DNA of 64,000 nucleotides from an uncultured Latescibacterota bacterium (GTDB taxonomy: Bacteria; Latescibacterota; UBA2968; UBA8231). The notes under the pieces were generated by a model. It worked only from the letters and a program-made list of their open reading frames with translations. It was not told where the DNA came from and searched no databases. The position numbers were made by a program, and so were the translations under genes. Positions 60,061 through 63,611 of this stretch are shown in pieces (the stretch's first letter is position 1; each line of letters begins with the position of its first letter). Location of the stretch: positions 6,049,739 to 6,113,738 of the forward strand of contig OX638377.1 in NCBI GenBank assembly GCA_951813615.1, given 5' to 3'.

Positions 60061-60759
60061 ATGCGCATACTCGTAACCGGCGCGGCCGGCAGCGTCGGCT
60101 CTAACGTGGCCCGCGGCCTCAAGGATCGCCACGAAGTGCGCGGCCACGACCGCGTGCCCATGCCCGATCTCACGGATACGGTCGTCTCTGACCTCACCGA
60201 CTTTGACTCTGTGCTAGAGGCCACGCGCGGCGTGGACGCCGTCGCGCACATTGGAGGCCTGCCCGGCGGCAACGAGTGGGAGCCCATGCTACAGAGCAAC
60301 TTCATCGGCACGTACAACGTGTTTGAAGCCGCCCGCCAAAACGGCGTCAAGCGCATCGCTTATGCCAGCCGCGCCGGGGTCTTAACGCTCTATCCGCGCA
60401 GCATCCGCCGCACGGTCGATATGACTACCACCCCGGTGGGCATCTACACGGTTAGCAAGGTCTTCGCCGAGGCGCTGGCCCACTCTTTTGCCCATCAGCA
60501 CGACATGGAATTTGTCTGCGTGCGCATTGGCAATTTCAACCTCGACCGCGACCAGCCCCAACACCCGCACCATCTCAGCCACGGCGATTGCGTGCGGGTT
60601 TTTGAGCAGGCGCTGATTCATCCGGGCGTCAAGTTTGAAATCGTCTTTGGGGTGTCGAGCAGCAACTGGCCGCTCTACGATGTCGAACACGGCAAGAGGG
60701 CGATTGGGTACGAGCCGCAGGATTATTCGGAGGTGCCGGAAGAGGAGTGGGGGAGGTAG
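60061..60759 (+). CDS. NAD-dependent epimerase/dehydratase
   Basis: 232 residues, extended-SDR type. LVTGAAGSVGSNVARGL (GxxGxxG), DAVAHIGG, an ASRAG segment where the catalytic Ser is expected, and YTVSK (YxxxK) are present. It is shorter than classical UDP-sugar epimerases, in the uronate-dehydrogenase-like size range. GAAAGGAG precedes the ATG. Confidence 0.9.
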   Translation: MRILVTGAAGSVGSNVARGLKDRHEVRGHDRVPMPDLTDTVVSDLTDFDSVLEATRGVDAVAHIGGLPGGNEWEPMLQSNFIGTYNVFEAARQNGVKRIAYASRAGVLTLYPRSIRRTVDMTTTPVGIYTVSKVFAEALAHSFAHQHDMEFVCVRIGNFNLDRDQPQHPHHLSHGDCVRVFEQALIHPGVKFEIVFGVSSSNWPLYDVEHGKRAIGYEPQDYSEVPEEEWGR

Positions 60760-60823
60760 GGCTACTCGGAGCGATGCGATGCCGACGGCAGTAATGCGGT
60801 TGGGAGACGATGGGCACTTTTGC

Positions 60824-60911
60824 TTGACAGCCCGTGAGTCCCTGGTACATTTCACAACATCACTAACAAGCGACGTAGGGCGGGTACCTCTACAACAGAG
60901 ATACCCGCCTA
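60824..60911 (+). promoter_or_regulatory. Promoter and long leader hairpin of the capsid-like/VapC unit
   Basis: TTGACA at 60824-60829 and TACATT at 60846-60851 (16 bp apart) form a reasonable promoter. The leader then forms a strong hairpin at 60876-60911 with arms GGCGGGTACCTCT and AGAGATACCCGCC, loop ACAAC, one C-A mismatch and about 14 pairs in all. It is followed by AAAAATA rather than a U-tract. It ends about 40 nt before the ATG at 60953. Confidence 0.45.
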
Positions 60912-60952
60912 AAAATATGCAATTGGACGTTACAGTAGTTAGAAGAAACAAT

Positions 60953-61948
60953 ATGACAGATTCGGAACTTCAGAAAAGTCGAGAGATTCTCGAAAGTTTG
61001 ACGGTCGAGAGCTTGCAGACCTCAAAAGGCCAGGAAGAATTTAATCAGGCGGCGGGCGAGTACATTCGCGACAAGATCAGAAAGACTTCGCTCTTTTACA
61101 GGGTGATACCTCCCCGGTCCGTAACCGAAAACGAATTAAAGCAACTTGGCAACACGACGGGTGATCAGCCAGATCTAAGATGTCTCATGCCCAGTGTACA
61201 GTTGCTCATGCCGGTACCAGTTATAGCGATGTTGATGGACATGCGTGGCGAGCCAGCCCCCAAGTATATAGACGGTGATCAGCAGCTTCCCATCCCGATA
61301 CGTTCCGTCGAGACCAAGTGGTTTGAAAAAACCACCGAGGAGCTTTTAGCCTCTGGTATCCTGAAGGTTGTCGAGGAAATGGCCTCTTGGGAGGCTAAGG
61401 AGCGTGACAGGAAATTTCTGGAGTACTGCGGACGGGCGGTCGCGCAATCGAAACAGATACTCCCGGCCAATGGCCCTCGCCCTCTGAAGCGCAGCGATCT
61501 CGTCGATATTAAGCGTCTAGCTGTGAAGAATCAGATTGGATCTAGGGTGGTACTTTTGTTGTCCGAAATGGCCTTCGGGACTTTGGAAGACTTTGCTGGG
61601 AGTAGTGACATGACATATATCCCTTCAACCAAGAAGGAGCTTTTTGATACTTGGGACAACGGTAAGCCTGCTTCAACAATATGGTCGTTTCCAGCGCCGG
61701 AGTTCTTGGGATACAATCTGTATTGCGGGAATTACAAGGTCCAGAGCCGGAGGAAAGCGAACGGGTGGAGGTTCATAGGATGGGAGGTGGTTGGTGCAGG
61801 CATTGGCAATATCAATGGCATTACTAAGCTCACTATAACGTCAACGTCGTCTCACCGGTTGGGCTTCATGGCCGGAGAGATCAAAGTCCCCGATGACTTC
61901 GACAGCATGGGTGGTCCTGAAATAGAGAAAATGTTTGGGGGAGGATGA
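60953..61948 (+). CDS. HK97-fold capsid-like protein (tentative)
   Basis: 331 residues from ATG 60953 (GTTAGAAGAAAC upstream, weak site). N-terminal LQTSKGQEEFNQAAGEYIRD and RKTSLFYRVIPPRSVTENEL, mid-region LPIPIRSVETKWFEKTTEEL and the C-terminal WEVVGAGIGNINGITKL pattern recall tailed-phage major capsid and encapsulin-type proteins, but no single signature proves the family. Base composition is lower in GC than the surrounding core genes, in line with transfer. No other phage structural gene adjoins it. It ends with a GGGGGAGGATGA that serves as ribosome-binding site for the next gene. Confidence 0.5.
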   Translation: MTDSELQKSREILESLTVESLQTSKGQEEFNQAAGEYIRDKIRKTSLFYRVIPPRSVTENELKQLGNTTGDQPDLRCLMPSVQLLMPVPVIAMLMDMRGEPAPKYIDGDQQLPIPIRSVETKWFEKTTEELLASGILKVVEEMASWEAKERDRKFLEYCGRAVAQSKQILPANGPRPLKRSDLVDIKRLAVKNQIGSRVVLLLSEMAFGTLEDFAGSSDMTYIPSTKKELFDTWDNGKPASTIWSFPAPEFLGYNLYCGNYKVQSRRKANGWRFIGWEVVGAGIGNINGITKLTITSTSSHRLGFMAGEIKVPDDFDSMGGPEIEKMFGGG

Positions 61949-62335
61949 GTGACTTTATTATTAGATACCCATCTGTTGCTATGGGCGGCGGGCGACCCAG
62001 GACAGTTGTCATCAAAAGCTCAGGACCTTCTCAGTGACCCCGCTACGGAACTGATATTCAGCACTGCAAGCATTTGGGAGGTCGTCATCAAGAGCGCACT
62101 CGGTAGAGACGACTTTCGTGTTAACCCACGGCAGTTGCGGGATGGCCTGATCCAAAACGACTACAGCGAACTTGAGATTCGATCTAAACACGCGCTCGCT
62201 GTCGGATCTCTGCCGCCGATTCACAAGGACCCCTTCGACCGCATACTCATAGCGCAAGCACAGGTCGAAAATATCACGCTGCTTACCACGGACGACAAGA
62301 TGGCCCGCTATTCCGGTCCTATTCAAACAGTCTGA
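61949..62335 (+). CDS. VapC-like PIN-domain toxin
   Basis: 128 residues from a GTG at 61949, immediately after the capsid-like stop. LLLDTHLLLWAAGD (first Asp), ASIWEVVIKSALGR (Glu) and KDPFDRILIAQAQ followed by LLTTDDKMARY (further acidic residues) fit the COG3744 PIN type. These RNases are normally partnered by a Phd/YefM-type antitoxin encoded just upstream; here the upstream coding sequence is the 331-residue capsid-like protein. Confidence 0.87.
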   Translation: MTLLLDTHLLLWAAGDPGQLSSKAQDLLSDPATELIFSTASIWEVVIKSALGRDDFRVNPRQLRDGLIQNDYSELEIRSKHALAVGSLPPIHKDPFDRILIAQAQVENITLLTTDDKMARYSGPIQTV

Positions 62336-62388
62336 TGGATTCCAAACCAAAAGCAACGACTGCTGGCTCGTAAAAAAAGAGGTCTGAT

Positions 62389-62691
62389 ATGCCAGTGTCA
62401 GCGACAGCAATGCCCAATGAGTACCGCGCTGATGTAGCTCGGGCGGTGGAGATTTGCAAAGCGGAGGGATGTCGAGACGTATTTATATTTGGCTCGGTCG
62501 CAGCCGGACGGCATCGGCCGCAGTCCGATCTGGATATAGGTGTCCGTGGCTGTCCACCCGAGCACTTCTATCGCCTGCTAGGTCGATTGATGGATGAACT
62601 CACCCATCCCGTGGACTTGGTTGATCTAGATACTGAAATCCGAGTTGCTGAATTCCTTGAGCAAGAAGATCAACTAGTGCAAGTTGGCTGA
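62389..62691 (+). CDS. MNT-type minimal nucleotidyltransferase
   Basis: 100 residues. DVFIFGSVAAGRHRPQSDLD carries the GSxxxGxxxxxSDxD polymerase-beta motif of MntA antitoxins. The usual HEPN (HepT) partner does not follow; the next gene is a dioxygenase. It is 53 bp beyond the PIN toxin. AGAGGT precedes the ATG. Confidence 0.85.
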   Translation: MPVSATAMPNEYRADVARAVEICKAEGCRDVFIFGSVAAGRHRPQSDLDIGVRGCPPEHFYRLLGRLMDELTHPVDLVDLDTEIRVAEFLEQEDQLVQVG

Positions 62692-62738
62692 GGTCCTCAG
62701 CCGATCTATTGTCTGTAAAATTCATAGAGGTAATAATC

Positions 62739-63611
62739 ATGGACCCAAGCTGCTTGCAGTACTGCATGACCGATGCACAGCGCGACCACTTCGAACAGCA
62801 GGGATACTTGATCGTCGAGAATGCGCTCGACGATGACATGCTGGGCAGGCTGCTGGAGGCTGGCGATCGCGTCGATGCCGAGGAAAGGGCAGCGCGTGAC
62901 TTGGCACCCAATGCCTTGCTGTCGAAATTCAGGACTATTGTTGAGGACGATATTTTTCTCGAACTGCTCGATTGGCCCAAGACGTTTCCGCTGATCTGGG
63001 ATATTCTCGGCTGGAACGTCCAGCACTACATCTCGCATTTGATCTACTACCCACCCGAATCCAAGAGCAGCATCAATTTGAAGCCCGGAGGCTGGCACCA
63101 AGACGGCGGCCGGCCGGTCCCCGAAATGGAGCGTCCCCAACCGAGATTGTCGCTCAAGGTCGGATTCTGGCTGACTGACATCAGCGAGTCGGAGAGAGGG
63201 GGTATCCGGATTGTCCCCGAAAGCCACAAGGGGGACCATCCGCCCGATTTTGCCGATGCGATGCAGGTTCAGGTAAAGGCGGGTACGGCCGTGTTGTTCG
63301 ACCGGCGGATGTGGCACGCGCGCGGGATGAATACCTCGGAGACGACCCGGAAAGTGCTGTTTTTGGGATACAGCTATCGCTGGCTGCGTGGCCTCGACTA
63401 CAACCTGATGCCCGCTGAAATGCTCGCCAAGTGCAGTCCCATACGTCGGCAATTGCTCGGCGATGGGGTGGATGTCAAAGGCTGGTGGCAGCCGACAGAC
63501 GAGGACGTTCCCCTCAAGGGCTGGCTGACTGAGCACAAGGGGAAGGAATACGTCGAGCGGATTGGGGAAAAGCAGTGGGAACGGGAAAAGTGGGAAGTGC
63601 CGGTCAGCTAA
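62739..63611 (+). CDS. Phytanoyl-CoA dioxygenase (PhyH) family protein
   Basis: 290 residues. FEQQGYLIVENAL opens the fold, GGWHQDGG supplies the HxD ligands, and FDRRMWHARGMNTSETTRKV the distal His and the 2-oxoglutarate Arg. It is a separate, shorter branch from the PhyH protein at 26254-27522. ATG 62739 follows AGAGGTAATAATC. Substrate unknown. Confidence 0.92.
   Translation: MDPSCLQYCMTDAQRDHFEQQGYLIVENALDDDMLGRLLEAGDRVDAEERAARDLAPNALLSKFRTIVEDDIFLELLDWPKTFPLIWDILGWNVQHYISHLIYYPPESKSSINLKPGGWHQDGGRPVPEMERPQPRLSLKVGFWLTDISESERGGIRIVPESHKGDHPPDFADAMQVQVKAGTAVLFDRRMWHARGMNTSETTRKVLFLGYSYRWLRGLDYNLMPAEMLAKCSPIRRQLLGDGVDVKGWWQPTDEDVPLKGWLTEHKGKEYVERIGEKQWEREKWEVPVS

What the first reader, a model, noticed from the sequence alone, without database searches (positions are those of the whole stretch)
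60824..62335. Capsid-like protein in the antitoxin position of a VapC toxin, behind a strong leader hairpin
A PIN-domain toxin starts at the base after the stop of a 331-residue protein with capsid-like patterns, and the normal small antitoxin is absent. Its GTG uses a ribosome-binding site inside the first gene, so the two are coupled. A promoter and a hairpin of about 14 pairs precede the unit. Possible readings: a phage-derived shell or sensor that restrains the toxin, an RNA antitoxin in the leader, or a phage-remnant junction. Each would be new to my knowledge.
Basis: inference. Interest (0 to 1): 0.6.

Follow-up and report, generated by a model that had tools for sequence, protein, structure and literature searches.

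The report
Antitoxin tail grafted onto unrelated domains
The toxin gene does have an antitoxin: the upstream protein ends in a standard antitoxin tail joined to an unknown 295-residue domain, and the same tail-plus-toxin DNA cassette sits behind several unrelated proteins in related bacteria, suggesting a plug-in toxin module that captures new partner domains.

Summary
The gene pair, promoter and leader hairpin are real, but the key inference (no antitoxin, capsid instead) is wrong. The last ~34 residues of the 331-aa protein are the toxin-binding tail of Phd/YefM antitoxins: a model built only from proteobacterial Phd antitoxins matches residues 298-330 at E 5e-14, 48.8 bits against 7.9 for the best of 2000 shuffles. 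The usual Phd DNA-binding domain is replaced by an orphan domain 'X' of ~295 aa. No phage, capsid, PDB or Pfam match to X was found, and its structure prediction failed (pLDDT 34). The wider finding: a ~495-bp 'tail + VapC' cassette, 82-84% identical in DNA with abrupt ends, sits behind unrelated N-terminal parts in the same class of bacteria (X, an unknown 'Y', Nmad2). Tails alone or with broken toxins follow RHH and DUF433 domains. In one genus the Nmad2 gene of a restriction/TIR defence island exists both with and without the cassette. Best reading: a VapBC-type toxin-antitoxin whose antitoxin tail and toxin travel together and were captured by new N-terminal domains, which probably set its stability, regulation or trigger. 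Neutralisation and sensing are inferred. It is a new variant of a known modular kind.

The parts
60824..60851 (+). sigma-70-like promoter TTGACA-16-TACATT with TG before the -10
   Evidence: conserved in five X loci
60878..60910 (+). leader hairpin / imperfect 30-bp dyad between promoter and start codon
   Evidence: in 11 genomes of the genus found only upstream of X genes
60953..61840 (+). X domain, ~295 aa, no known family, under purifying selection (dN/dS 0.26-0.43)
61841..61948 (+). Phd-type toxin-binding antitoxin tail (residues ~297-331) and stop codon; same reading frame as X
61949..62335 (+). vapC, PIN-domain toxin, GTG start directly after the TGA stop
   Evidence: PF01850; VapC fold
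61845..62338 (+). the ~495-bp tail+VapC DNA cassette shared (82-84% identity) with Nmad2 and Y loci, in parts with RHH loci, with abrupt ends

Best explanation
The unit is a type II (VapBC-like) toxin-antitoxin pair with a chimeric antitoxin. Its last ~34 residues are the Phd-family tail that binds the PIN toxin. The rest is a 295-aa domain X in place of the Phd DNA-binding domain. Tail and toxin form one ~495-bp DNA cassette that has become joined, in frame, to the 3' ends of unrelated genes (X, Y, Nmad2; also RHH and DUF433, with broken toxins). Coupled translation keeps antitoxin ahead of toxin. Shown: tail homology, cassette boundaries, recurrence, a with/without comparison at the Nmad2 locus, and purifying selection. 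Inferred: the tail neutralises VapC, VapC cuts RNA, and the N-terminal domain sets antitoxin stability, operon control or a trigger (for example an infection signal) that frees the toxin. I give about 0.8 to the chimeric antitoxin, 0.7 to cassette capture as its history, and 0.35-0.4 to a true sensor role for X.
For: A Phd HMM from four proteobacterial antitoxins hits window residues 298-330 at model 47-79, E 5e-14, and hits the Y, Nmad2 and RHH proteins over the same tail. Canonical 81-aa Phd + tail + VapC pairs exist on plasmids with the same tail. More distant VapC genes in the phylum have upstream frames ending in related tails. DNA identity starts at the tail and ends just past the VapC stop between X, Y and Nmad2 loci. 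Nmad2 is 198 aa and tail-less in G027 but Nmad2-tail-VapC in G029, in both between a ThsB-TIR gene and HsdS. X cassettes nest inside Y cassettes on a tree, support 92-96. VapC dN/dS is 0.13-0.30 among X loci. Literature: fusing Phd-C to SUMO suffices to neutralise a Doc toxin (PMC10440598), and a Phd 52-73 peptide alone inhibits Doc (PMC9207808).
Against: No wet-lab data. The AlphaFold single-chain model of tail+VapC did not place the tail with confidence (pLDDT mostly below 70). The literature on tail sufficiency concerns Doc, not VapC. Several cassette copies have broken toxins, so some fusions are decaying. No recombinase or target-site duplication was identified.
Confidence: 0.75

Rival explanations
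1. Ordinary autoregulated type II pair: X is an unrecognised DNA-binding domain that binds the 30-bp dyad in its leader, so only the DNA-binding half of the antitoxin has been exchanged, as antitoxins with RHH, AbrB and Phd domains suggest.
For: The dyad is conserved in 5/5 X loci, lies between promoter and start codon, and occurs nowhere else in 11 genomes. PIN toxins are known with RHH, AbrB and PHD partners (PMC2701414), and antitoxins are modular (PMC10440598).
Against: X is far larger than the usual antitoxin DNA-binding domains and has no HTH, RHH, AbrB or Phd match. Nmad2, another partner, is not a known repressor family.
Confidence: 0.3
2. Selfish capture: the tail+toxin cassette fuses to whatever gene it lands behind, making loss of that gene harmful; the N-terminal domain needs no sensing role.
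For: Unrelated N-terminal parts, abrupt cassette ends, and the with/without Nmad2 comparison. Frequent toxin loss with the tail left behind.
Against: The partners that can be named (Nmad2 in a TIR/restriction island, RHH, DUF433) are defence or toxin-antitoxin genes rather than random genes, although few events were seen.
Confidence: 0.25
3. A phage-derived capsid-like protein restrains the toxin.
Against: No match in PHROGs, phages (tblastn, E up to 10), PDB sequences or Pfam. The tail alone can explain neutralisation. No phage genes were seen beside the locus.
Confidence: 0.06
4. Non-functional remnant: a chance fusion in a decaying toxin-antitoxin hot spot.
For: Broken or missing VapC in RHH, DUF433 and second-X copies. 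The locus is a hot spot with AbiEi, HepT, HigB and HSDR_N genes in relatives.
Against: Four intact X-tail-VapC copies; dN/dS 0.26-0.43 for X and 0.13-0.30 for VapC; conserved promoter and leader.
Confidence: 0.08

Closest known systems
Phd/YefM-VapC (VapBC) type II toxin-antitoxin pairs, e.g. Mesorhizobium WP_258580728 / WP_183465714
   Same: PIN toxin directly downstream and coupled; same C-terminal tail (58-67% identical to the window's in the canonical copies aligned)
   Different: The ~50-aa Phd DNA-binding domain is replaced by a 295-aa unknown domain (here), or by Nmad2 or Y (relatives)
Panacea (PanA) antitoxins carrying a Phd-C region, with Doc toxin (PMC10440598)
   Same: A Phd-type neutralising region attached to a larger non-Phd domain that the authors think is sensory
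   Different: No Panacea domain found; the toxin is VapC, not Doc; here tail and toxin are shared as one DNA cassette among several N-terminal domains
CapRel-type fused toxin-antitoxin (as discussed in PMC10440598; that it senses phage proteins is from my own knowledge)
   Same: Possible logic: a sensor part keeps a toxin in check
   Different: Toxin and antitoxin are separate proteins; a PIN nuclease instead of a toxSAS; no trigger known

Membership tests
Phd-VapC type II toxin-antitoxin | PIN-domain toxin with its conserved acidic residues | tested here: met
   PF01850 E 1.4e-13; LLDTH, SIWE, DPFDR and TTDD acidic positions present; VapC fold, Z 13.8 to 5ecw at rmsd 2.9 over 122 residues
Phd-VapC type II toxin-antitoxin | Phd-type C-terminal toxin-binding tail on the upstream protein | tested here: met
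   E 5e-14; about 57-70% identity in the listed hits, most of the annotated ones named Phd antitoxins
Phd-VapC type II toxin-antitoxin | Phd/YefM N-terminal DNA-binding domain (PF02604) | tested here: not met
   No Pfam match in X; the canonical relative L083 does match PF02604
Phd-VapC type II toxin-antitoxin | Toxicity, neutralisation by the partner, and autoregulation | not testable with these tools
   needs expression and binding assays
HK97-fold capsid proteins | Similarity to capsid families or the HK97 fold | tested here: inconclusive
   No sequence match; the fold could not be predicted (pLDDT 34)
Type III RNA antitoxin | Tandem RNA repeats upstream of the toxin | tested here: not met
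   No tandem repeats in 60700-62400; no Rfam match in 60500-62800

The most novel reading that the evidence does not exclude
Tail+VapC is a plug-in killer cassette that turns existing sensor or defence proteins (Nmad2, annotated as nucleotide-modification associated; X; Y) into infection-triggered antitoxins: when the N-terminal domain meets its ligand or is attacked, the tail lets go and VapC stops translation.
Probability: 0.3. Interest if true: 0.75.

Novelty: new variant of a known kind. Interest (0 to 1): 0.55.

Why it matters
Antitoxins are known to be modular, and fusion or exchange has been proposed as how they evolve (PMC10440598). Here the process can be seen in natural genomes: the same tail-plus-toxin DNA unit behind several unrelated domains, and one gene with and without it at the same site. 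If the N-terminal domains are sensors, this gives a direct way to find what triggers a VapC toxin, and to discover new sensing domains by searching for known antitoxin tails on large proteins.

Tried and rejected
Capsid identity: PHROGs, Pfam, NCBIfam, PDB sequence searches and phage/viral scans gave nothing. A weak Microvirga plasmid hit (E 7) was a small hypothetical gene, taken as chance. AlphaFold of X with 5 homologues failed. Alternative ATG at 60917 (343 aa): in the alignment that frame stops early in two of the five X loci, so 60953 is preferred. Leader hairpin as terminator: no U-run after the stem. Leader as RNA antitoxin: no repeats, no Rfam match. AlphaFold of tail and VapC as one chain (TGA read as W) modelled VapC well but not the tail contact. 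Viral contigs held no relative of X or of the tail.

Full report
What is there. The 331-aa ORF at 60953-61948 is followed directly by a GTG-started PIN-domain gene at 61949-62335 (PF01850, E 1.4e-13). A good promoter starts at 60824 and a stable hairpin lies at 60878-60910. Both are conserved at the same locus in G002, G007 and G010 of the same genus, and in 11 genomes of the genus the hairpin sequence occurs only upstream of X genes.

The antitoxin is not missing. tblastn of the 331-aa protein against plasmids hit only its last ~35 residues, mostly in genes annotated as Phd/YefM antitoxins, next to VapC toxins in the three annotated records opened. A model of four canonical Phd antitoxins from Mesorhizobium, Methylomonas, Piscirickettsia and Sphingopyxis matches window residues 298-330 at model positions 47-79, E 5e-14, 48.8 bits; the best of 2000 shuffles of the protein reached 7.9 bits. 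Other, 36-46% identical VapC genes in the phylum have upstream frames, most ending in related tails, so the ordinary arrangement also seems to exist in these bacteria, including elsewhere in the window's own genome (L049).

The rest of the protein, X. No family matches residues 1-295 (sub-threshold rows came from single members). Full-length X was found in four genomes of one genus among 64 genomes of the phylum, plus two diverged fragments in G010, one of which stops right where the tail would begin (GITKLTLTYD*). X is under purifying selection (dN/dS 0.26-0.43) and VapC more strongly so (0.13-0.30 among X loci). The capsid idea has no positive evidence, but the fold could not be predicted, so it is unsupported rather than disproved.

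A shared cassette. Searching the tail found 14 copies in the class. Reading the frames showed unrelated N-terminal parts: X; an unknown ~270-aa 'Y' (L009, L010); Nmad2 (PF18753, E 1.2e-72; L012); RHH (weak Pfam matches below cut-off; L017, L018); DUF433 (E 1.1e-19; L013-L015). DNA comparison shows a block of ~495 bp, 82-84% identical, starting at the tail and ending just past the VapC stop, with nothing alike outside it between the X locus and the Y and Nmad2 loci. On a tree of the block, the X copies nest inside the Y copies with Nmad2 outside, rooted on Phd pairs (supports 92-100 for these nodes). The RHH and DUF433 copies examined have VapC deleted or truncated.

With and without. In genus g9, G027 has a 198-aa Nmad2 with no tail between a ThsB-TIR gene and a gene read as HsdS. 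G029 has Nmad2-tail-VapC at the same place. G026 carries a DUF433-tail in a similar island (HsdM and HsdS named by eye, not by a family search). At another site, between genes read as MFS transporter and lactonase, G006 has Y-tail-VapC while G010 and G001 carry the tail with broken VapC.

How it probably works. In Phd antitoxins the C-terminal region can be enough to neutralise: the Phd 52-73 peptide binds and inhibits Doc with picomolar affinity and rescues growth slowly (PMC9207808), and Phd-C fused to SUMO rescues cells whereas bare Phd-C does not (PMC10440598). A stable carrier domain is therefore expected to make a working antitoxin. That fits X-tail restraining VapC, with coupled translation keeping the antitoxin first. 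What X adds is open: repression through the leader dyad, stability, or sensing. The settings of two other partners (Nmad2 beside TIR genes in a restriction island; DUF433 in a similar island) make a defence role plausible, but that is inference.

Limits. No experiment; few independent fusion events; genomes mostly fragmented and unnamed; the tail-VapC contact was not confidently modelled; other phyla could not be surveyed for tails on large proteins.

Noticed in passing
window 62389-62691: Lone MNT-type nucleotidyltransferase downstream of VapC, with no HEPN partner seen beside it; G007 has a HepT-like gene near the matching place (L062:10074-10553).
   Followed up: partly
L055:11277-12539 (G010): Second X copy where VapC is gone and X plus a truncated tail is fused in frame to the MNT nucleotidyltransferase.
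   Followed up: partly
L058:4896-6787 and L090:7360-8445: ThsB-type TIR genes followed directly by Nmad2 inside a restriction-modification island: a possible defence pair worth its own look.
   Followed up: no
L014, L015 and L056:5510-5721: VapC internal deletions in separate loci resume at nearly the same 3' point (IAQAQ codons), leaving most or all of the antitoxin tail.
   Followed up: no
interval between the NAD-epimerase gene and the PhyH gene (window 60760-62747 and L055, L062, L063, L109, L111): Variable hot spot: relatives carry AbiEi, HepT, HigB, HSDR_N, another PIN-like gene and a weak Peptidase_M78/HTH match here.
   Followed up: partly
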